From positions 186,001-250,000 of the forward strand of contig NZ_CP122961.1 of the NCBI RefSeq assembly GCF_029854215.1: a stretch of 64,000 bases of DNA, written 5' to 3'. A model generated the notes under the pieces. That model did not search any database. It saw only the letters and a list, made by a program, of their open reading frames with translations, and was not told the DNA's origin. A program made the translations under genes and the position numbers. Shown here in pieces: positions 10,065 to 18,948 of this stretch. How positions within the stretch are numbered: position 1 is the stretch's first letter; each line of letters begins with the position of its first letter. The DNA comes from Halomonas alkaliantarctica (lineage in GTDB: Bacteria; Pseudomonadota; Gammaproteobacteria; Pseudomonadales; Halomonadaceae).

Positions 10065-10955
10065 TTAAGCCCCTTGCTCCACTTCCAGCGGCGTAGTTTT
10101 ACGCCGCAGCTTGGCTGCCAAGCTGTGGTAGCGACCAAACAGGGCCGAAAAGAGATAACCAAACCCGGCCAGTAGAATAATGCTCGGGCCTGAAGGGATA
10201 TCCAGATGAAAAGAGAGCAGCAGACCGCCGGTGCTCGCCACCATGGCCAGCACAATCGCGATGCCTATCAAACCCTCTAAGCGTTTACTCCAAAAGCGCG
10301 CCGAGGTGGCGGGCAGCATCATTAAGCCGACGGCCATTAGCGTGCCCAGAGTTTGAAAGCCTGCGGTTAGGTTCAGCACCAGCAGCCCCAAAAACACGCT
10401 GTGTACCCAGCCGCTGCGGCGACTCTGGCCACGCAAAAACAGCGGGTCCAAGCACTCCACTACCAAGGCGCGAAACACCACCGCCAGGGTCAACACAATC
10501 AGCGTACTGATGCCCGCTATCAGCAGCAGCGCGGTGGAGTTGATCGCCAAAATCGAGCCAAACAACACATGGGTAAGGTCAACGCTGCTGCCGCCCAGTG
10601 AAATCAGCATCACGCCTGCGGCTAGCGAGATAATAAAAAAGCTCGCCATGGCGGCATCTTCGCGCTGACCGCCCATTTTTGAGACCGCTCCCGCCAGCAG
10701 CGCCACCATTAACCCAAACAGCACCCCGCCAATGCTCATAATCGGCAGTGAAAACCCTGCCAGCAGAAACCCCAGCGCGACGCCGGGCAGAATTGCGTGG
10801 GCCATGGCATCGCCAATCAGGCTCATACCGCGCAGCACCAAAAAAACCCCCAACGGCGGCGCGGCCAGCGAAAGCGCTAAACCACCCACCACCGCGCGGC
10901 GCATAAAGCCGTAATCGAACGGGCTGACAAACCACACATTAAGCAGATCCAGCAT
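10065..10955 (-). CDS. znuB: Zinc ABC transporter permease
   Basis: The 296-residue product is an ABC-3 family permease with about eight membrane helices. Typical segments include RRAVVGGLALSLAAPPLGVFLVLRGMSLIGDAMAHAILPG near the N-terminus and FQTLGTLMAVGLMMLPATSARFW. It forms the inner-membrane channel of the ZnuABC importer. It overlaps the end of znuC by 17 bp and precedes znuA by 35 bp, so the three genes form one transcript. Confidence 0.95.
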   Translation of the reverse strand: MLDLLNVWFVSPFDYGFMRRAVVGGLALSLAAPPLGVFLVLRGMSLIGDAMAHAILPGVALGFLLAGFSLPIMSIGGVLFGLMVALLAGAVSKMGGQREDAAMASFFIISLAAGVMLISLGGSSVDLTHVLFGSILAINSTALLLIAGISTLIVLTLAVVFRALVVECLDPLFLRGQSRRSGWVHSVFLGLLVLNLTAGFQTLGTLMAVGLMMLPATSARFWSKRLEGLIGIAIVLAMVASTGGLLLSFHLDIPSGPSIILLAGFGYLFSALFGRYHSLAAKLRRKTTPLEVEQGA

Positions 10956-11673
10956 GGCGTCCTCCCAGGGTAAACGGCACCACCTGAGCGGGCGCTTGTT
11001 GATGCGTCAGCGCACTGGGCGCAACCCAGCGACCATGGCCGCCGTTTAGCATCAACACTTCGTCGGCCAGTCGGCGCAGGTGATCCATATCGTGGAGTAC
11101 GACAATAATGGTCGCACCATCGTCCGCCATCTGGCGCAGAATGCGGATCAGAATATCCACGGTTTCACTATCCACGTTGGCAAACGGCTCATCGAGCAGA
11201 AGCAGTTCGGCTTCCTGCATTAACGTACGGCCAATCAGTGCACGCTGGCGCTGACCGCCGGAAAGCTCACCCAGCGGGCGATGGGCCAAGTGCGAAATAC
11301 CTAGTCGCGCCATGATCTCGCGACCCTTGCGGTAGTGACTCGCGCAGTAGCCGGTTAACGCCCCGTGGCTGGGCCAACTGCCGGTCATCACCAGCTCTTC
11401 CACGCTCATAGGAAAGGTCAGGTCCAGCGCTAACTGCTGGGGCAGCCATGCCCGACGCTCTTTGGTGATGGTACAGACCACTTCGCCGCTAATAGGCCGA
11501 AGTTCGCCCATAATCGCCTGAATAAGCGTGCTTTTACCGGCACCGTTAGCACCAATCAGCGCGGTAATCGCGCCCGGCTTAAAGTCGCCTTCGATATGCT
11601 CCAGCACCGTGCGTCGCGCCTGGGCCAAGTGCAGATTGTGCAGCTGTAAACGTGATAAAGAGCGCTGACTCAT
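10939..11673 (-). CDS. znuC: Zinc ABC transporter ATP-binding protein
   Basis: The 244-residue ATPase has Walker A GANGAGKS, Q-loop LPQQ, signature LSGGQRQR, Walker B LLLLDEP and the switch histidine in VLHDMDH. It powers zinc uptake through ZnuB. I chose the ATG at 11673 because it forms an ATGA overlap with the small upstream gene, indicating translational coupling. The protein lacks the His-rich C-terminal extension found in some ZnuC proteins. Confidence 0.95.
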   Translation of the reverse strand: MSQRSLSRLQLHNLHLAQARRTVLEHIEGDFKPGAITALIGANGAGKSTLIQAIMGELRPISGEVVCTITKERRAWLPQQLALDLTFPMSVEELVMTGSWPSHGALTGYCASHYRKGREIMARLGISHLAHRPLGELSGGQRQRALIGRTLMQEAELLLLDEPFANVDSETVDILIRILRQMADDGATIIVVLHDMDHLRRLADEVLMLNGGHGRWVAPSALTHQQAPAQVVPFTLGGRHAGSA

Positions 11674-11819
11674 CCTAACCACCCGCTAGCCCAAACCACC
11701 AAGCCCCAAAGCGCCAATAGCGGCACGGCAACGAACAGCAGCCGTTTAACAGCCGATAGCGACATCAAGGAGAAGTGGCATGGGCCCTCCTTGTTGTGGC
11801 GGTGCGTATGCTCACTCAT
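11670..11819 (-). CDS. Small His-rich membrane protein, first gene of the zinc operon
   Basis: The 49-residue product starts MSEHTHRHNKEGPCHF, with four histidines and a cysteine in a potential metal-binding N-terminus, and ends with one hydrophobic helix (LLFVAVPLLALWGLVVWAS). Its stop overlaps the znuC start as ATGA, and its ATG lies 27 bp downstream of a Zur-box palindrome. It is therefore the leading cistron of the zinc operon. I do not recognise a named family; a role in zinc sensing or handling is inferred only from position and composition. Confidence 0.75.
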   Translation of the reverse strand: MSEHTHRHNKEGPCHFSLMSLSAVKRLLFVAVPLLALWGLVVWASGWLG

Positions 11820-12816: not shown

Positions 12817-13791
12817 ATGGATGACTTTTCGCCCAATGACTTAAAAACCATTCTTCACTCCAAGCGCGCCAATCTCTATTACCTGCAACATTGCCGGGTA
12901 TTGGTAAACGGGGGGCGCGTAGAGTACGTCACCGATGAGGGCAGCAAATCCCGCTACTGGAATATTCCCATAGCCAACACCACCTCAATACTGCTGGGCA
13001 CCGGCACCTCGATTACCCAGGCGGCCATGCGTGAGCTTGCCAAAGCAGGTGTATTAGTTGGATTTTGCGGTGGTGGTGGCACACCGCTATTTGCGGCGAA
13101 TGAAGTCGATGTGGATGTCGCCTGGCTGACCCCGCAAAGCGAATACCGGCCCACAGAGTACCTGCAATACTGGGTGCGCTTCTGGTTTGACGATGCAAAA
13201 CGCCTGGATGCCGCCCGTGCGTTTCAGCAGGCGCGCCTTACGCGTATCGAAGCGCTGTGGACAAGCCGTGTAATGAAAGATGCAGGCTTTGGTATTTCCG
13301 CCGATCACCTGCACAGCGCTCTTGTCCATCACCGCGAAGCGATCAACAAAGCCCCCAGCACCGTCGACCTACTAACCTTAGAGGCACGTTTAACCAAAAC
13401 GCTCTTCAAGCTGGCGGTGAACGCTGTCGACTACGGTGAGTTCACACGCGCCAAGCGCGGCACAGGCACCGACCCCGCCAACCGCTTTCTCGATCACGGT
13501 AACTACCTTGCCTATGGCTTGGCGGCGACCGCCACCTGGGTGCTGGGCATTCCCCACGGCCTCGCGGTGCTCCACGGCAAAACCCGCCGGGGCGGCCTAG
13601 TCTTTGATGTGGCGGATTTGGTGAAAGACGCGGTGATTCTGCCCCAGGCGTTTATTTCCGCCATGCGCGGTGATGAAGAGCAAGAGTTTCGTCAAGCCTG
13701 CATCGAGCGCTTAACCCGCACCGAATCCCTCGACTTTATGATCGATACCCTCAAGGAAGTTGCCCAAGCGTTGGGGAGTGGCGAAGCATGA
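12817..13791 (+). CDS. cas1: CRISPR-associated endonuclease Cas1, type I-F
   Basis: Cas1 integrates new spacers as a complex with Cas2-3. The 324-residue protein follows the I-F pattern: DLKTILHSKRANLYYL, the IPIANTTSILLGTGTSITQAA segment, and GVLVGFCGGGGTPLF. Likely catalytic residues are Glu189, His253, Asp264 and Asp267, offset by one from the Pseudomonas aeruginosa I-F Cas1 residues. I chose ATG 12817 because AGGAG is six bases upstream and I-F Cas1 begins at MDDxSPxDLK; an earlier in-frame ATG at 12760 adds 19 unrelated residues. The stop overlaps the cas2-3 start as ATGA. Confidence 0.97.
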   Translation: MDDFSPNDLKTILHSKRANLYYLQHCRVLVNGGRVEYVTDEGSKSRYWNIPIANTTSILLGTGTSITQAAMRELAKAGVLVGFCGGGGTPLFAANEVDVDVAWLTPQSEYRPTEYLQYWVRFWFDDAKRLDAARAFQQARLTRIEALWTSRVMKDAGFGISADHLHSALVHHREAINKAPSTVDLLTLEARLTKTLFKLAVNAVDYGEFTRAKRGTGTDPANRFLDHGNYLAYGLAATATWVLGIPHGLAVLHGKTRRGGLVFDVADLVKDAVILPQAFISAMRGDEEQEFRQACIERLTRTESLDFMIDTLKEVAQALGSGEA

Positions 13792-16700
13792 ATGTGCTTT
13801 TGATTTCCCAGTGCAACAAAAACGCCCTGAAAGAGACACGCCGCATCCTCGACCAGTTTGCCGAACGCCGAGGCGACCGTACTTGGCAAACGCCGATCAC
13901 CCAGGCCGGGCTGGACACCCTGCGCAAACTGCTGCGTAAAAAAGCCCGCAAAAACACCGCCGTCGCCTGCCACTGGATTCGTGGCCACGACCATAGTGAA
14001 TTGATGTGGGTGGTGGGGGATGCCTCGCGGTTTAATTCGCGAGGTGCCACACCGACTAATACGACACGGCGGAATATCCTGCGCACAAAAGACGAAAACG
14101 ATTGGCACAGCGGCCAATTGATTCATTTGCTTGCCTCTATGGCGGCGCTCTTCCATGACCTGGGAAAAGCGATGGAGGCTTTCCAGCTTAGGTTGGTCGG
14201 TAAGTTAGAGGGCCGCAACCGTTATCGTCATGAGTGGGTGTCGCTCAGGCTATTGGAAGCATTCGTTGGTGATGACGATGATGAGAGCTGGTTGGTCCGG
14301 CTGCAAAACCCGACCGCACCGAACGATGCACGCTGGCTAGGGCAGCTAAAGTGTGATGGCTTGGATGGTGCGCGCGAAGAGCCATCACCGTTTCTTCATC
14401 TGCCGCCTATTGCCAAAGCAATCGGCTGGCTAATTGTCAGTCATCACCGCTTACCAGCACAGCCTGCTTTTGATGAAAAAACCGGTGCGCAGAAGTGGCT
14501 GGGTGCCAAGGCGCCTATCAATGCCGGTAGCCTGCCTATGCTTCCTAATGACATAACGGCAGCTTGGAACGAGCGCGTAGAGCCCGCAACCCCCGCTGAC
14601 ATAACACCTTATTGGACATTTCCACACGGTTTGCCGGTCACCACTAGAGCATGGCGGGAGCGTGCTCAGCGTCTCTCTCGTCAGCTAAGCACGGTGCGCT
14701 TCATAACGCCCCCGCTCGATTCTCCCTACGTTATGCACTTAGCGCGCATGGCGTTGATGCTGGCTGATCACCATTACTCAAGCCTGACAGTTGATGGTCG
14801 CTTATCGGGTAAGTGGTCTCTGCCTCTGTATGCCAATACGGCAAATGTTAACGGTAAACGACAGCTAAGCCAGCCATTGGAAGAACACCTGCTAGGAGTA
14901 ACTCGCGCAACAGGGGAGATCGCTCATCGCTTGCCCGATATGGTCAAAGCAATGAGCGGTATTACTGGGCACAAAGGTTTTAAAGCACGTAGCAAAAATC
15001 CTCGTTTTCGCTGGCAGGATAAAGCCTATGATCTTGCCGTTGGGGTGCGTGAGAAAAGTCAGCGCCAAGGCTTTTTCGGTATCAATATGGCCTCGACGGG
15101 GTGTGGCAAGACAATTGCCAATGGGCGTATTTTTTATGGTTTGAGCGAGCCGGAAATCGGGGCGCGTTTTGCTATTGCTCTTGGGCTGCGCACATTGACC
15201 CTCCAAACAGGGCAAGCCTATCGTGAGCGCTTAGGGCTTGGGAGCGATGATCTTGCGATCCGCGTTGGAGGAGCAGCCAGCCGTGAGCTGTTTGAACATC
15301 AGCAGTCTCAAGGTGGGTCAGACTCCCGGGCTGAATTACTGGATGAGCAGAGCCACGTACATTTTGAGGGCAACGTCGATGCGCATCCCGTCCTTAATAA
15401 GGCTGTCGCCGACCCTCGTGCGCGCTCTTTGATTTGTGCTCCTATTCTCGTCTCCACCATCGACCATCTGGTGCCCGCTACAGAAAGCCTGCGTGGCGGC
15501 CATCAAATTGCCCCAATGCTGCGCTTGATGAGCAGCGATCTTGTGCTGGACGAGCCAGATGATTTCGATATCAATGACTTGCCCGCTTTGACGCGGCTGG
15601 TCTATTGGGCCGGTATGCTGGGCTCTCGAGTGCTGCTTTCCTCTGCCACTTTGCCGCCTGCGTTGGTTCGCGGCCTTTTCGATGCTTACCGCGAAGGCCG
15701 CGCCGAATACCAGCGCCACCGGGGCGTGCTGGGAGCGCTCGTTGAGCCGGTATGCGCCTGGTTCGATGAGCATGGCTGCACGCAGGAAAGCTGCGCTGAC
15801 GGCATGCGCTTTGATGCTGCTCATGACGCTTTTGCCCGTAAACGGGCTGCCAAGCTGGCAGCGCAGCCGCCACTACGGCGTGGCTACCTTGTTCCTTTTT
15901 CGGTGTCTTCATCTCTGGATGTCATTGCCGAGGCCTTGGCGCAAACGGTGGTCGAGCAGGCGCTTAAACTGCATAAAGCACACCATACGATAGACCCGCA
16001 CAGCGGCAAGAGAGCAAGTTTCGGACTCGTGCGCATGGCCAATATCGCGCCTCTAGTAGCCCTTGCTCAGGCGCTCTATCGCACCGATATTCTTGAAGGT
16101 TGCCAGTTTCATCTGTGCGTCTATCACTCGCAATTTCCGCTGCTTCTGCGCTCTCGGCTGGAGGCACGGCTTGACCGTGCACTGGATCGCCGTGATGAAC
16201 TGGGTGTCTTTGAACTGCCCGATATTCGCGCTCGTTTGAAGGGTGAGGCGAACGACCAGTTGTTCATCGTACTGGGATCGCCAGTCACCGAGGTAGGGCG
16301 CGATCACGATTACGACTGGGCCATTGTCGAGCCGTCTTCCATGCGTTCGATCATTCAACTTGCCGGGCGCGTTCGCCGCCATCGTCTAAATCCGATTAGC
16401 GAAGCCAATATCGCTTTGCTCAGCACCAACGTAAAGCATCTTGAAGGAATGCGGCCTGCCTTTAGCCACCCAGGTTTCGAGACCGAGCAGTACTGGCCAC
16501 TGAAAACCCACGATCTCAACACTCTGCTACGGGCAGAAGAAATTGATCCTATCGACTCCCGTCCACGTTTAATGGCGTCAGATGCGCTCGAACCCAGCGG
16601 CAAACTGGTAGATCTGGAGCATGCGCGGCTGGCCTCGCTGATGGTTGAGGGAGCTGAAACGCCTAGCAAGACGCAGCGCCGTAAACGCCGTGGGGAGCCG

Positions 16701-17120
16701 CAAAAGATCGACCTTTGCGCCTATCTTTTCTACCGGCCTACTTCGATGACGCTGGGGGCGGTGGCTATGCAACACGCGCCGTTTCGTGAGGATAATGCCC
16801 AAGAGAGCGAGTTCGTATTGATACCGGATGAGGCCGAGGAGGATTACCTGTTTCGCCGTGTGGAGCGCAACGGTCTTGACGAGGAGTTCAAGGAGGTTGA
16901 AAGGGATCTCGATAGGTTGCCCGAGGGGCTATTGGAAAATCTGCGTATCACTCCCTGGAACGAGCCCGACTATATAAAAGCCCTTGCCGAACAGGCTGAT
17001 GCCATGGAGATGGACATTGAGCGTTGTGCAAAGCGCTTTGGGCGCATCCGACTCAAAACCGACTATGCACCTCACGGGTGGCATTTCCATCCTGCGCTGG
17101 GATTTGTGAGAAAGAAATGA
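13788..17120 (+). CDS. cas2-3: Cas2-Cas3 fusion nuclease-helicase, type I-F
   Basis: In type I-F the effector nuclease-helicase Cas3 is fused behind a Cas2 domain, joining adaptation to target destruction. The 1110-residue protein has an N-terminal Cas2 part (MNVLLISQCNKNALKETRRI, residues 1-90), the HD nuclease with His123-Asp124 in ALFHDLGKA, Walker A STGCGKT near 437, the DEPD Walker B box near 587, SSATLPP near 618 and motif VI QLAGRVRRHR near 856, then a C-terminal domain. All core motifs look intact. Its start overlaps cas1. The 3' end overlaps the terminator of the antisense mini-CRISPR RNA described at 17110-17225. Confidence 0.97.
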   Translation: MNVLLISQCNKNALKETRRILDQFAERRGDRTWQTPITQAGLDTLRKLLRKKARKNTAVACHWIRGHDHSELMWVVGDASRFNSRGATPTNTTRRNILRTKDENDWHSGQLIHLLASMAALFHDLGKAMEAFQLRLVGKLEGRNRYRHEWVSLRLLEAFVGDDDDESWLVRLQNPTAPNDARWLGQLKCDGLDGAREEPSPFLHLPPIAKAIGWLIVSHHRLPAQPAFDEKTGAQKWLGAKAPINAGSLPMLPNDITAAWNERVEPATPADITPYWTFPHGLPVTTRAWRERAQRLSRQLSTVRFITPPLDSPYVMHLARMALMLADHHYSSLTVDGRLSGKWSLPLYANTANVNGKRQLSQPLEEHLLGVTRATGEIAHRLPDMVKAMSGITGHKGFKARSKNPRFRWQDKAYDLAVGVREKSQRQGFFGINMASTGCGKTIANGRIFYGLSEPEIGARFAIALGLRTLTLQTGQAYRERLGLGSDDLAIRVGGAASRELFEHQQSQGGSDSRAELLDEQSHVHFEGNVDAHPVLNKAVADPRARSLICAPILVSTIDHLVPATESLRGGHQIAPMLRLMSSDLVLDEPDDFDINDLPALTRLVYWAGMLGSRVLLSSATLPPALVRGLFDAYREGRAEYQRHRGVLGALVEPVCAWFDEHGCTQESCADGMRFDAAHDAFARKRAAKLAAQPPLRRGYLVPFSVSSSLDVIAEALAQTVVEQALKLHKAHHTIDPHSGKRASFGLVRMANIAPLVALAQALYRTDILEGCQFHLCVYHSQFPLLLRSRLEARLDRALDRRDELGVFELPDIRARLKGEANDQLFIVLGSPVTEVGRDHDYDWAIVEPSSMRSIIQLAGRVRRHRLNPISEANIALLSTNVKHLEGMRPAFSHPGFETEQYWPLKTHDLNTLLRAEEIDPIDSRPRLMASDALEPSGKLVDLEHARLASLMVEGAETPSKTQRRKRRGEPQKIDLCAYLFYRPTSMTLGAVAMQHAPFREDNAQESEFVLIPDEAEEDYLFRRVERNGLDEEFKEVERDLDRLPEGLLENLRITPWNEPDYIKALAEQADAMEMDIERCAKRFGRIRLKTDYAPHGWHFHPALGFVRKK

Positions 17121-17225
17121 AGCAGTCAGCCCTTAAATGGGCTGACTGCTGCTGCCTGGGCGGCAGAATAAATTCCCGCCTATGGCTAGGCAGTAGTTTT
17201 CTAAGCTGCCATTGCGGCAGACCAT
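17110..17225 (-). ncRNA. Candidate CreR/CreA-type mini-CRISPR RNA antisense to the cas leader
   Basis: Read on the minus strand this is a repeat-guide-repeat unit. The first pseudo-repeat (17225-17198) matches the array repeat at 20 of 28 positions. It keeps the Cas6f hairpin CTGCC-GCAAT-GGCAG and the 8-nt 5' handle CTTAGAAA (array: CTCAGAAA). A 31-nt guide (17197-17167) follows. The second hairpin (17166-17152), CTGCCGCCCAGGCAG, is identical to the array repeat stem-loop. Immediately after it a 12-bp terminator hairpin with a T-rich tail ends the unit. Cas6f (Csy4) cleavage would give a 54-nt crRNA-like RNA, six shorter than the normal 60. CreR/CreA RNAs known from other CRISPR types guide Cascade to repress cas or toxin promoters. 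No transcript evidence is available. Confidence 0.8.
17121..17150 (-). terminator. Terminator of the antisense mini-CRISPR RNA
   Basis: AGCAGTCAGCCC and GGGCTGACTGCT form a perfect 12-bp stem with a 6-nt loop. On the minus strand it is followed by TCATTTCTTTCTC, a T-rich tract; on the plus strand no T-run follows. It therefore fits a terminator for leftward transcription, directly abutting the second pseudo-repeat, and it lies right at the cas2-3 stop codon. Confidence 0.75.
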
Positions 17226-17242
17226 ACATTGTATATAATGTA
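17212..17242 (+). promoter_or_regulatory. Candidate promoter of the csy operon, overlapping a divergent promoter for the mini-CRISPR
   Basis: A perfect TATAAT (17234-17239) has a weak -35 TTGCGG 16 bp upstream (17212-17217). It lies in the palindrome TACATT-gtatat-AATGTA (17225-17242). On the opposite strand TACAAT (17233-17228) could serve as the -10 of the antisense RNA, placing its start at the first pseudo-repeat. The two -10 boxes overlap, so the two transcripts may compete. A second possible rightward promoter uses TAGACA or TTACAG near 17272-17284 and AATATT near 17295. Confidence 0.5.
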
Positions 17243-17257: not shown

Positions 17258-17291
17258 TATCTCCAAACCTCTTACAGTTAGACAGTAGTGG
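17258..17291 (-). other. Protospacer-like target of the mini-CRISPR guide, with CC PAM
   Basis: On the minus strand CC (17291-17290) is followed by ACTACTGTCTAAC. The mini-CRISPR guide begins ACTACTGCCTAGC. Positions 1-7 are identical, 10 of the first 11 match and 16 of the first 22 match; the match is lost after position 22. CC next to the protospacer is the type I-F PAM. Two of the six mismatches (12 and 18) fall at every-sixth positions that type I guides flip out. Such partial matches favour binding without cleavage. The site lies just downstream of the TATAAT promoter and upstream of csy1. Confidence 0.75.
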
Positions 17292-17310: not shown

Positions 17311-17559
17311 GGTGTAACGTAGAAAGCGTGAGGCAGGCCAGTGCCTCACGCCAAATGAATCAATGCTGACGGGCCATGTTAGCCCCAAGCTCTCTGGGAC
17401 AGTGAGGGCAGGAGGATATGCATCGTGGCTAGGCACCACCGCAAGATAATAATCCTGTGACGGGTTTAGGCCTGTCCATATCCAAGCCCCGAGGCAGCAA
17501 TGCTTCGGGGTTCATTATGCCATGCCGATGGCATGTCACCCAACTAGGGCAGAGAATTT
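17311..17559 (+). other. Structured untranslated leader before csy1
   Basis: This stretch has no long reading frame but several strong inverted repeats: GCGTGAGGCA/TGCCTCACGC (17326-17351), GGGC/GCCC near 17371, GGATATG/CATATCC (17414-17420 with 17477-17483) enclosing two smaller stems, GACGGG/CCTGTC near 17460-17477, CCCCGAGGCA-GCAA-TGCTTCGGGG (17487-17510, GNRA loop) and ATGCCAT-gccg-ATGGCAT (17517-17534). The hairpin at 17487 is followed by TTCATT, only a weak terminator tail. The density of stems suggests a folded 5' leader or a small RNA; no known riboswitch class was recognised. Confidence 0.5.
17425..17460 (+). CDS. Candidate CreT-like mini-ORF with tandem rare codons (speculative)
   Basis: A perfect AGGAGG (17410-17415) lies nine bases before a GTG that opens an 11-codon frame: M(V)ARHHRKIIIL and TGA. 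It contains AGG and then ATA-ATA-ATC; AGG and ATA are rare in GC-rich genomes. An alternative ATG at 17418 is only two bases from AGGAGG and gives MHRG. CreT toxins are very short ORFs with strong ribosome binding sites and rare codons that tie up scarce tRNAs, usually beside a CreA mini-CRISPR. Position and form fit, but so short a frame can arise by chance. Confidence 0.3.
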   Translation: MARHHRKIIIL

Positions 17560-18948
17560 ATGTCAGAACCCCAACCCCCTGGTTCATTGCGAGAACTGAT
17601 TGAGCAATTTATTCACCAGCGCTTTGCGACCAAAACAGAGAAAATGGCGTCAGATGACCCCGCCTATATCAAATTGCAGGAACAGTTCGTGCCACAGACG
17701 TGGTTGGCCGATGCTGCTCGGCGCGTCAGTCAGCTTCAAGTCGTAACCCACTCCCTCAAAGCGATCCACCCAGATGCCAAGGGCACCAATCTATATGTGG
17801 AGCCCCGGTCGCTCGAACAGGGCGATCTAGTGGGTAGCCATTGCCTGCCTGATGACTTCCAAGGCGACGTTGTCGGCAATGCAGCTGCCCTTGATGTCTA
17901 CAAGTTCCTCAAGCTCGAATGGCAAGAGCGTTCACTACTGGAGCTGGCGCTTGAAAATGACGATACGTTAGTCGGCGCCCTCAGCAAAGAGCGTGAAGAA
18001 GCGCAAGCGTGGGCTCAGGCCTTTGCCAACATTGTTGAGCCAAAGGGAACGCCTAGCTCGCATGCGCGAGGCAAGCAGGTGTACTGGCTGGTTAACGACG
18101 ATCCTACTGATAATGCCAGCTATCATCTATTAGCTCCGCTTTATGCCACCGCCTTGACTAACCCGTTTCATGCGCGGCTTAGCGAAGCCCGTTTTGGCGA
18201 ACACGCCAAGGCGGGGCGTAAGGCGCGCCGCGATAACGCCGCGTTTGAGGGTGGCTACAGCGACTATCTCAACCTGGCCGTGCAGAAGCTCGGCGGTACC
18301 AAGCCGCAAAATATCTCTCAGCTCAATAGTGAGCGGGGCGGGCAGAACTATTTACTCGCTTCGCTGCCACCGAACTGGATTTCCCGTGATGTAACCCCTC
18401 CGCTTCGTACGGAGTCGGTGCTACCTCGCTTTGGCCGGCGAGCGCCGGTTCGCCAACTGATCAATGATTTGGTCAATTGGATCAAACAGAATATGAAAGA
18501 GGATGAACGCCGAGCCCAGTCCGGAAAAGCGCCACGAAAGACGTATCAGGATCGGGATTTACATGACGACCTGACGGCAATGTTATCCGATGAGCTTTTG
18601 ATGTTTACGTATGAGCTTCACCGTTTAACACCTGGCTGGTCAAAAGACAGTGAGTGCCGATTGGTGACTGCTGAATGCTATTGGCTCGACCCAGGACGAA
18701 GCGAGCTGGATTCTGATTTTGCAACCGCACGACGGCGATCTGATTGGCATGAAGACATTTCTCATCGAGTAGCGGGTTGGCTAAAAAACACGCTTACCAA
18801 GCGTATGAAGATCAGCCTGGATGATCCAGTACACGACTTTTGGGCAGCCCAGGTTGAGCTTGTGTTACGCAATTTCCGCCGACAGCTAGAAGACTTGGAA
18901 GACGCCTTGCGTGACGATGACGAAAGCCTTCAAGGAGAGCTTGCATGA
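17560..18948 (+). CDS. csy1: Type I-F Cascade subunit Csy1 (Cas8f1)
   Basis: Csy1 is the large subunit of the I-F surveillance complex; with Csy2 it forms the tail that recognises the CC PAM. The 462-residue product starts SLRELIEQFIHQRFATKTEKM and has the Csy1 segment THSLKAIHPDAKGTNLYVEP, then YWLVNDDPTDNASYHLLAPLYATALT and LGGTKPQNISQLNSERGG, typical of this family. The start is the ATG at 17560 with a weak GGCAGAG ribosome site. A structured 439-bp gap holding the mini-CRISPR separates it from cas2-3. The stop overlaps csy2 as ATGA. Confidence 0.95.
   Translation: MSEPQPPGSLRELIEQFIHQRFATKTEKMASDDPAYIKLQEQFVPQTWLADAARRVSQLQVVTHSLKAIHPDAKGTNLYVEPRSLEQGDLVGSHCLPDDFQGDVVGNAAALDVYKFLKLEWQERSLLELALENDDTLVGALSKEREEAQAWAQAFANIVEPKGTPSSHARGKQVYWLVNDDPTDNASYHLLAPLYATALTNPFHARLSEARFGEHAKAGRKARRDNAAFEGGYSDYLNLAVQKLGGTKPQNISQLNSERGGQNYLLASLPPNWISRDVTPPLRTESVLPRFGRRAPVRQLINDLVNWIKQNMKEDERRAQSGKAPRKTYQDRDLHDDLTAMLSDELLMFTYELHRLTPGWSKDSECRLVTAECYWLDPGRSELDSDFATARRRSDWHEDISHRVAGWLKNTLTKRMKISLDDPVHDFWAAQVELVLRNFRRQLEDLEDALRDDDESLQGELA

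What the first reader, a model, noticed from the sequence alone, without database searches (positions are those of the whole stretch)
17110..17225. Antisense mini-CRISPR between cas2-3 and csy1: a candidate CreR/CreA guide RNA
Seen: on the minus strand, a pseudo-repeat with an intact Cas6f hairpin and a CTTAGAAA handle, a 31-nt guide, a second hairpin identical to the array repeat stem-loop, then a perfect 12-bp terminator with a T-rich tail. The unit has no other spacers, sits in the only large gap of the cas cluster, and has a possible -10 exactly upstream. Known: CreR/CreA RNAs are degenerate mini-CRISPRs that use the host Cascade as a repressor of cas or toxin genes. Inference: this locus makes a 54-nt crRNA-like RNA that is loaded into the Csy complex. 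The terminator abutting the second repeat and the complete handle-hairpin order argue against random decay of an old array.
Basis: partly seen in the sequence, partly recalled or inferred. Interest (0 to 1): 0.95.

Follow-up and report, generated by a model that had tools for sequence, protein, structure and literature searches.

The report
CRISPR-guarded RNA toxin with rare codons
Between two CRISPR defence genes, this relative of Halomonas carries a tiny guide-RNA-like gene whose guide matches a nearby spot ahead of an 11-codon reading frame holding two rare codons in a row; the pair likely works as an addiction switch in which the CRISPR complex would hold down a toxic RNA, so that cells losing CRISPR would be poisoned.

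Summary
On the minus strand, 17121-17220 is a mini-CRISPR: degenerate repeat hairpin, CTTAGAAA handle, 31-nt guide, second repeat hairpin, terminator. Such units stand in 47 of 97 measured cas3-csy1 gaps of I-F loci (window included); with the best CC-flanked site per gap chosen on all 18 positions equally, positions 1-5 and 7 match in 47/47, but 6, 12 and 18 in only 11, 12 and 15, the every-sixth-base signature of a Csy-loaded guide. No other PAM dinucleotide works. Guide and target change together. Downstream of the target the window has a strong SD and an 11-codon mini-ORF with ATA ATA at codons 8-9. Thirty loci (window included) have such mini-ORFs; the pair is ATA ATA, AGA AGA, AGG AGG, AGG AGA, TTA TTA or (once) AGA ATA. 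This fits CreTA, known at this slot in Acinetobacter, with a predicted tRNA-trapping CreT as in archaea. Some relatives lack the mini-ORF and have the target 7-22 nt before csy1, which is CreR-like. Transcription, repression and toxicity are untested.

The parts
17121..17150 (-). predicted rho-independent terminator of creA (12-bp stem, T-rich tail)
   Evidence: sequence
17152..17166 (-). psiR2: second repeat hairpin, predicted 3' handle of CreA; same 15-mer as the array repeat hairpin
17167..17197 (-). CreA guide, 31 nt up to the psiR2 stem (array period 60 nt)
17198..17205 (-). 5' handle CTTAGAAA left after predicted Csy4 cleavage
   Evidence: CTNAGAAA in 41 of 47 units; a handle-like string was used to find units, so this count is partly by construction
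17206..17220 (-). psiR1: degenerate first repeat hairpin (predicted Csy4 site)
   Evidence: compensatory changes across relatives
17228..17233 (-). creA -10 TACAAT (with TGCACA 16 nt upstream)
17234..17239 (+). TATAAT, candidate creT -10; candidate -35 TTGCGG at 17212-17217 lies inside psiR1
   Evidence: found in the window and close relatives, not above shuffles family-wide
17290..17291 (-). CC PAM of the CreA target
17259..17289 (-). CreA target (protospacer); 12 of 15 scored positions of guide nt 1-17 match
17326..17351 (+). 10-bp hairpin in the predicted CreT leader
   Evidence: z -5.4
17410..17415 (+). Shine-Dalgarno AGGAGG of the mini-ORF
17425..17460 (+). candidate creT mini-ORF GTG GCT AGG CAC CAC CGC AAG ATA ATA ATC CTG TGA
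17425..17439 (+). possible hairpin that holds the start codon (GUGG/CCAC, 7-nt loop), same register as described for Acinetobacter WCHA45 CreT
   Evidence: not the free-energy minimum of the window's own sequence
17446..17451 (+). tandem rare codons ATA ATA (codons 8-9)
   Evidence: ATA 0.44% of codons in 47 window ORFs
17487..17510 (+). stable hairpin before csy1, terminator- or attenuator-like without a clear T run
   Evidence: z -5.5
13788..17120 (+). cas2-3 (cas3f)
17560..18948 (+). csy1 (cas8f); csy2, csy3, csy4 follow to 21575

Best explanation
The cas2-3/csy1 gap carries what is likely a CreTA pair: a minus-strand mini-CRISPR (creA) whose guide matches a PAM-flanked site ahead of a plus-strand mini-ORF with a strong Shine-Dalgarno and two ATA codons in a row, predicted to make the Csy complex repress an RNA (creT) that would be toxic by trapping the rare isoleucine tRNA. 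Steps shown by sequence: the repeat hairpins, handle, guide and terminator; the CC-flanked partial match in the same gap; conservation of such a match across relatives with free positions at every sixth base; the SD, mini-ORF and tandem rare codons, with the codon identity swapped between relatives. Steps inferred: creA is transcribed; Csy4 cuts it to a 54-nt crRNA-like RNA; Csy loads it and blocks creT transcription, without target cleavage because pairing beyond about nt 17 is poor; on loss or inhibition of Csy the creT RNA is made, ribosomes initiate strongly, stall at AUA AUA and tie up tRNA-Ile(CAU); cells that lose the cas genes are thereby slowed or killed.
For: Guide-target: 46 of 47 units score 11-15 of 15 at a CC-flanked site in their own gap; of 2162 guide-against-other-gap controls 1896 score 6-9 and 69 score 11 or more, those of 12 or more mostly between near relatives. 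The exception, L066, lost its site to an exclusion zone in that script; one search shows the site. With the site chosen on all 18 positions equally, matches are 47/47 at 1-5 and 7 but 11, 12 and 15 of 47 at 6, 12 and 18; 31 units with distinct seeds show the same (9, 7, 8 of 31); CC gives 45/47 scores of 12 or more, each other dinucleotide 0 or 1. The 34 units parsed without help by eye show it too: 34/34 at 1-5 and 7; 8, 9, 11 at 6, 12, 18. The window's guide scores 12 on its own target and 8-11 on seven relatives' targets; the L061 guide 13 on its own and 6 on the window's. Toxin: a pattern of SD plus codons 1-5, blind to later codons, finds 20 sites in 275 genomes, 18 of them in cas3-csy1 gaps and 2 elsewhere. 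All 26 mini-ORFs aligned on that core (including these 18) carry a pair at codons 8-9: 12 ATA ATA, 10 AGA AGA, 2 AGG AGG, 1 AGG AGA, 1 TTA TTA. In each of the 26 the codons of the pair are among the five rarest in long ORFs of the same stretch; TTA TTA is used where TTA is rare (L004 0.00%, L097 0.19%; window 1.30%). Fewest changes of amino-acid class on a quick Csy1 tree of 30: 8. Start-codon hairpin: 90% of cells paired against 76.8% shuffled, 22 against 9.8 double-sided changes. Precedents: PMC10097628, PMC8501985.
Against: No expression or toxicity data. The window's own guide-target match is among the weakest of the family (12/15, p 0.001 within its gap); in its whole genome 8 other CC-flanked sites have as few mismatches, and the reversed control pattern gives 13 matches against 12. 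The window's start-codon hairpin is not the predicted energy minimum (z 0.37), and free CreA folds its own guide. By sigma-70 consensus neither the creT promoter (median 61 of 100 shuffles as good, 27 loci) nor the full creA promoter (median 40) stands out family-wide; only a creA -10 close to psiR1 does. Per the paper, in Acinetobacter WCHA45 only synonymous changes of codons 2, 3 and 5 are named as removing toxicity, and its authors favour rRNA contacts. The mini-ORF list was drawn up with the rare pairs in view; L066 (AGA rank 15) and L102 (AGA ATA; ATA rank 18) fit the rarity rule badly. Shared ancestry inflates all counts.
Confidence: 0.72

Rival explanations
1. CreR-type autorepressor: the guide directs Csy to the leader of the csy1-csy4 transcript, so that the complex limits its own synthesis; the mini-ORF is a leader peptide or attenuator rather than a toxin.
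For: In L013, L015, L008 and L010 the same kind of unit has its target 7-22 nt before csy1 and no mini-ORF of this kind (sequences of L008 and L015). In the window any transcript from about 17246 that passes the hairpin at 17487-17510 would run into csy1.
Against: In the window 268 nt lie between PAM and csy1, with an SD, a mini-ORF with swapped rare-codon pairs in relatives, and a stable hairpin. Of the 29 loci with a gap under 100 nt, 24 have csy1 14-49 nt after cas3, which suggests that csy1 need not have this promoter.
Confidence: 0.2
2. Both at once: one repressed promoter drives a toxic leader RNA and, by read-through, csy1-csy4, so that CreA sets the Csy level and punishes Csy loss (overlaps with the best explanation).
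For: Gene order, single target, no clear T run after the hairpin at 17487-17510; CreR-like relatives in the same slot.
Against: No promoter or transcript data; promoter evidence is weak family-wide.
Confidence: 0.3
3. CreTA as published for Acinetobacter: the toxin acts through SD, start codon and hairpin loop on rRNA, and the rare codons are incidental.
For: Same slot, same orientation, same hairpin register and a 7-nt UUGGCUA/UUAGCUA-type loop.
Against: The pair at codons 8-9 stays a tandem rare pair while its letters change between ATAATA, AGAAGA, AGGAGG and TTATTA, and the codon used is among the five rarest of its own locus in 26 of 26 core loci; an RNA-only mechanism does not predict this.
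Confidence: 0.25
4. Decaying piece of an old CRISPR array, or a solitary-repeat RNA anti-CRISPR, without a regulatory role.
For: psiR1 is degenerate.
Against: PAM specificity, guide-target covariation and every-sixth-base pattern; compensatory hairpin changes; two repeats, a guide and a terminator inside a cas operon rather than a lone repeat.
Confidence: 0.03

Closest known systems
CreTA of Acinetobacter sp. WCHA45, type I-F (PMC10097628)
   Same: Sits in the cas3-csy1 gap (about 400 bp); creA with psiR1, short guide and psiR2 divergent from creT; CC-flanked partial target between them; SD plus a mini-ORF (33 bp there, 36 bp here); start codon inside a hairpin with matching register.
   Different: Here the guide runs 31 nt to the psiR2 stem (20-nt psiS plus 20-nt 3' handle there); unpaired guide positions are 6, 11 and 18 there, and 6, 12 and 18 are free in this family; a tandem rare-codon pair is kept at codons 8-9. 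The published mechanism is rRNA contact; the only codons named there as sensitive to synonymous change are 2, 3 and 5.
CreT of Halobacterium hubeiense / Haloarcula hispanica, type I-B (PMC8501985)
   Same: Mini-ORF with two consecutive AUA or AGA codons and strong initiation; a close homologue swaps AUA for AGA.
   Different: Archaeal, I-B; the pair lies close to the start there but at codons 8-9 here, after a start-codon hairpin; the terms I-F and Halomonas have 0 occurrences in that main text.
CreR (seen in passages of the review PMC12737573)
   Same: crRNA-like RNA using the host effector as a repressor inside the cas locus; matches the relatives whose target abuts csy1.
   Different: CreR is described as acting on the cas promoter, generally without a toxin; the window has a toxin-like mini-ORF.
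Racr RNA anti-CRISPRs (PMC10651486, start of abstract in search listings only)
   Same: Repeat mimics outside arrays.
   Different: Solitary repeats in viral genomes; here two repeats with a guide and a cognate target inside the cas operon.

Membership tests
CreTA (type VIII toxin-antitoxin) | creA built of one or two degenerate CRISPR repeats with Cas6-type handles | tested here: met
   by sequence; processing itself untested
CreTA (type VIII toxin-antitoxin) | spacer-like guide partly matches a PAM-flanked site at creT | tested here: met
   CC only; 12/15 in the window, 11-15 in 46 of 47 units
CreTA (type VIII toxin-antitoxin) | target at or just downstream of the creT promoter | tested here: inconclusive
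   TATAAT at 17234 in the window and close relatives; not above shuffles family-wide
CreTA (type VIII toxin-antitoxin) | small creT RNA with strong translation-start signals and a mini-ORF | tested here: met
   by sequence; the RNA itself untested
CreTA (type VIII toxin-antitoxin) | creT is toxic and is repressed by the Cas effector with CreA | not testable with these tools
   needs cells
tRNA-sequestering CreT | two consecutive rare codons in a strongly initiated mini-ORF | tested here: met
   ATA ATA at codons 8-9; a rare pair in 26 of 26 core mini-ORFs
tRNA-sequestering CreT | toxicity lost by synonymous codons or rescued by the cognate tRNA | not testable with these tools
   needs cells
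Acinetobacter-type I-F CreT | start codon inside a short hairpin with a 7-nt loop | tested here: inconclusive
   family-wide pairing and covariation (26 of 30 mini-ORFs given), but not the minimum-energy fold of the window's own sequence
CreR | target in the promoter or leader of its own cas genes, no toxin | tested here: inconclusive
   window: target 268 nt before csy1 with a mini-ORF between; met by layout in L008, L010, L013, L015
Racr | solitary repeat in a viral genome | tested here: not met
   two repeats, guide and target between intact cas genes

The most novel reading that the evidence does not exclude
I-F CreT of Halomonas relatives is an exchangeable-cartridge tRNA trap: a start-codon hairpin and strong SD load ribosomes onto a mini-ORF whose codons 8-9 are swapped in evolution between pairs read by different rare tRNAs (Ile AUA, Arg AGA/AGG, Leu UUA), tracking which codon is rare in that host; and the same cas3-csy1 slot moves between such toxin pairs, plain Csy autorepressors (CreR) and protein toxin-antitoxin genes (HicAB, ParDE), many of them under a Csy-loaded guide.
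Probability: 0.5. Interest if true: 0.82.

Novelty: new variant of a known kind. Interest (0 to 1): 0.7.

Why it matters
It would extend CRISPR-regulated RNA addiction modules to many I-F loci of the Halomonas family and some others of its order, suggests that bacterial I-F CreT may poison translation by trapping rare tRNAs as the archaeal ones do, in tension with the published rRNA reading, and offers natural codon-swap variants with which to test this. The every-sixth-base pattern in 47 guide-target pairs is a natural experiment on how Csy reads partly matched targets, and the CreR-like relatives in the same slot make the passage between CreTA and autorepressors testable.

Tried and rejected
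A start-stop ORF (GTG TAA, SD AAGGA, 248 nt before csy1) was dropped: one search lists none like it in L061 or L063. Other SD-preceded small ORFs (such as GTG ATC GCA TAA in L021, L025, L034, and GTG ATC GCA AAG ATA CGC TAA in L033) were not counted as creT. A pattern for the WCHA45 mini-ORF, inferred from the paper's text, was searched in the 8 held genomes of one genus (that of L088): 0 matches; whether WCHA45 has a rare pair at codons 8-9 stayed unknown. The paper mentions 19 further modules and a supplementary list that I could not read, so Halomonas modules may already be listed there. A family-wide creT promoter by consensus was not supported. psiR2 and array hairpins are identical in only 2 of 22 loci with a readable array (window, L036).

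L073/L074 and L038/L051 are near-duplicates but were kept. Units were found by a handle-like string plus a psiR2-like hairpin. Thirteen were parsed by eye (L006, L019, L025, L055, L062, L086, L088, L091, L092, L097, L098, L099, L104). Of these, L062 and L055 had failed with the automatic parse and L019 had scored only on the other strand before I re-read them, and targets of L006 and L019 had been seen by eye first. The 34 automatic units give the same pattern alone. Mini-ORFs of L097 and L102 were found by reading with the rare pair in view. To I gave 29 of 47 psiR1 units, chosen to thin near-duplicates; three of them (L008, L010, L013) have a 4-nt loop and sit out of register.

Full report
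What is there. The gap between cas2-3 (ends 17120) and csy1 (starts 17560) holds a minus-strand unit: hairpin CTGCC-GCAAT-GGCAG, handle CTTAGAAA, 31-nt guide, hairpin CTGCC-GCCCA-GGCAG, 12-bp terminator stem with a T-rich tail. The neighbours are I-F cas1, cas2-3, csy1, csy2, csy3 and csy4, each above its NCBIfam cut-off. The array repeat hairpin occurs 55 times in the locus (one search shows the 60-nt period).

The target. On the same strand, nearer csy1, the sequence reads CC followed by ACTACTGtCTAaCtgTA, against the guide ACTACTGcCTAgCcaTA: 12 of 15 positions match when nt 6 and 12 are left out, which about 1 in 1000 shuffled guides reach in this gap. In the whole genome this match alone is not unique: 8 other CC-flanked sites also have three mismatches to the pattern used, and the reversed control pattern has 13 matches against 12. 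The case therefore rests on relatives.

Relatives. Csy1 was found in 79 of 275 genomes of the family and in 52 of 390 drawn from the order, which include members of the family. Of 97 loci with a measured cas3-csy1 distance (window included), 29 have a gap under 100 nt and 68 have 100 nt or more. Of the 68, 47 hold a parsed unit. Their guides differ: 31 have distinct seeds. In 46 of 47 the best CC-flanked site of the own gap scores 11-15 of 15; in L066 the site fell in an exclusion zone of that script and is seen. Of 2162 tests of a guide against another locus's gap, 1896 score 6-9 and 69 score 11 or more. When the best site is picked with all 18 positions equal, positions 1-5 and 7 match in 47 of 47, and 6, 12 and 18 in 11, 12 and 15; any dinucleotide other than CC leaves 0 or 1 of 47 matches of 12 or more. 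The 34 units parsed by the script alone give 34 of 34 at 1-5 and 7, and 8, 9 and 11 at 6, 12 and 18. That every sixth base of the guide is turned away from the target in Csy is recalled knowledge; here it shows as positions that match at about the chance rate. Guide and target change together: L061, 92% identical in Csy1, scores 13 with its own target and 6 with the window's. The psiR1 stem, in 29 of the 47 units, has 8 double-sided changes against 1.3 in shuffles. CTNAGAAA is kept in 41 of 47, partly by construction, since a handle-like string was used to find units.

The partner. Downstream of the target the window has AGGAGG and, 9 nt on, GTG GCT AGG CAC CAC CGC AAG ATA ATA ATC CTG TGA (17425-17460). 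A pattern of SD plus codons 1-5 (which the window's own variant does not match) hits 20 places in 275 genomes; 18 are in cas3-csy1 gaps, and of the other two one looks like the start of an ordinary gene and one like a chance match (read by eye). In all 26 mini-ORFs aligned on that core (window and those 18 included) codons 8-9 are a pair of rare codons: 12 ATA ATA, 10 AGA AGA, 2 AGG AGG, 1 AGG AGA, 1 TTA TTA. Four further mini-ORFs with another core carry AGA AGA (two, at codons 6-7), TTA TTA and AGA ATA. The codons of the pair are among the five rarest in long ORFs of the same stretch in 26 of 26 core loci and in 28 of all 30; the misfits are L066 (AGA, rank 15) and L102 (ATA, rank 18). TTA TTA occurs only in L004 and L097, where TTA is 0.00 and 0.19% of codons, against 1.30% in the window (samples other than the window are small, 762-2454 codons). 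On a quick Csy1 tree of the 30 loci, with long branches flagged by the tool, the amino-acid class changes at least 8 times. The start codon lies in a short stem in the family (26 sequences, 20 distinct: 90% of cells paired, shuffled 76.8%; 22 double-sided changes, shuffled 9.8), in the register described for Acinetobacter WCHA45 CreT (A1-U15, U2-A14, G3-C13, U4-G12). For the window alone this stem is not the minimum-energy fold.

Mechanism. By analogy with two characterised kinds, the I-F CreTA of Acinetobacter (PMC10097628: outline, abstract, Results parts 1-3 of 4, Discussion and passages) and the archaeal CreT that sequester tRNA-Ile(CAU) or tRNA-Arg (PMC8501985: outline, abstract and passages), I infer that CreA is cut by Csy4, loaded by Csy and blocks transcription toward the mini-ORF, and that loss of Csy would release an RNA that stalls ribosomes on AUA AUA. 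The tension is that in WCHA45 the codons named as sensitive to synonymous change are 2, 3 and 5, so either the two families poison differently or both features contribute. A creA -10 close to psiR1 is supported (mean 4.2 of 6 in a fixed window, shuffled 2.5, 27 loci); full promoters on either strand are not above shuffles family-wide, though TATAAT stands upstream of the target in the window and several close relatives.

The slot. Eighteen of the 47 units have no mini-ORF of this kind. In L013, L015, L008 and L010 the target ends 7-22 nt before csy1 (script index minus 5), which looks like CreR. In L021, L025 and L034 the gap holds a HicB-like gene (Pfam tested for L021). In L038 a ParDE pair (Pfam) sits between creA and its target and the mini-ORF region is missing from the alignment; L051, of the same gap length, also lacks the mini-ORF. 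The small ORFs of L083, L098 and L104 gave no Pfam hit. Ten loci with a 223-224-nt gap have no parsed unit.

Novelty. The library searches (open-licence PMC papers only, listings capped at 10-20 papers) showed me no paper on CreTA in Halomonas or on tandem rare codons in an I-F CreT, judging by the listings and the passages read (also PMC9458426 and PMC12737573, passages only). The original CreR paper and the supplement of PMC10097628 were not read. I call it a new variant of a known kind.

Noticed in passing
L021, L025, L034 (cas3-csy1 gaps of 843-925 nt): HicB-like gene (Pfam HicB hit tested for the L021 copy) with a neighbouring small ORF on the minus strand of the gap; L021 and L025 also have a creA-like unit whose target is close to csy1.
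   Followed up: partly
L014, L016, L017, L020, L022, L023, L026, L027, L028, L030: Ten loci share a 223-224-nt gap without a parsed creA unit; a minus-strand ORF of about 60-70 aa seen in L014 and L027 resembles by eye the start of the HicB-like protein, but gave no Pfam hit (L027).
   Followed up: partly
L038, L051 (gap 1133 nt): In L038 a ParDE toxin-antitoxin pair lies between creA and its target and the mini-ORF region is missing; L051 has the same gap length and likewise no mini-ORF.
   Followed up: partly
L019, L104: The best CreA target lies on the opposite strand from the usual one, still CC-flanked (14/15 and 13/15).
   Followed up: no
L055 gap: The creA unit has a second spacer-like stretch and a further repeat, like a two-spacer mini-array; the mini-ORF ends right after AGA AGA.
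   Followed up: no
L083, L085, L098, L099, L104: Small ORFs (about 60-80 aa) in the cas3-csy1 gap where the mini-ORF would be; those of L083, L098 and L104 have no Pfam hit; possible protein partners (CreP-like).
   Followed up: partly
L062: Csy1 groups with Arg-pair loci on the quick tree but the mini-ORF is of the window's Ile type, which suggests exchange of the module by recombination.
   Followed up: no
window 10939-11682 (-): ABC transporter ATP-binding protein, best NCBIfam match zinc AztA (below its cut-off), next to the cas locus.
   Followed up: no
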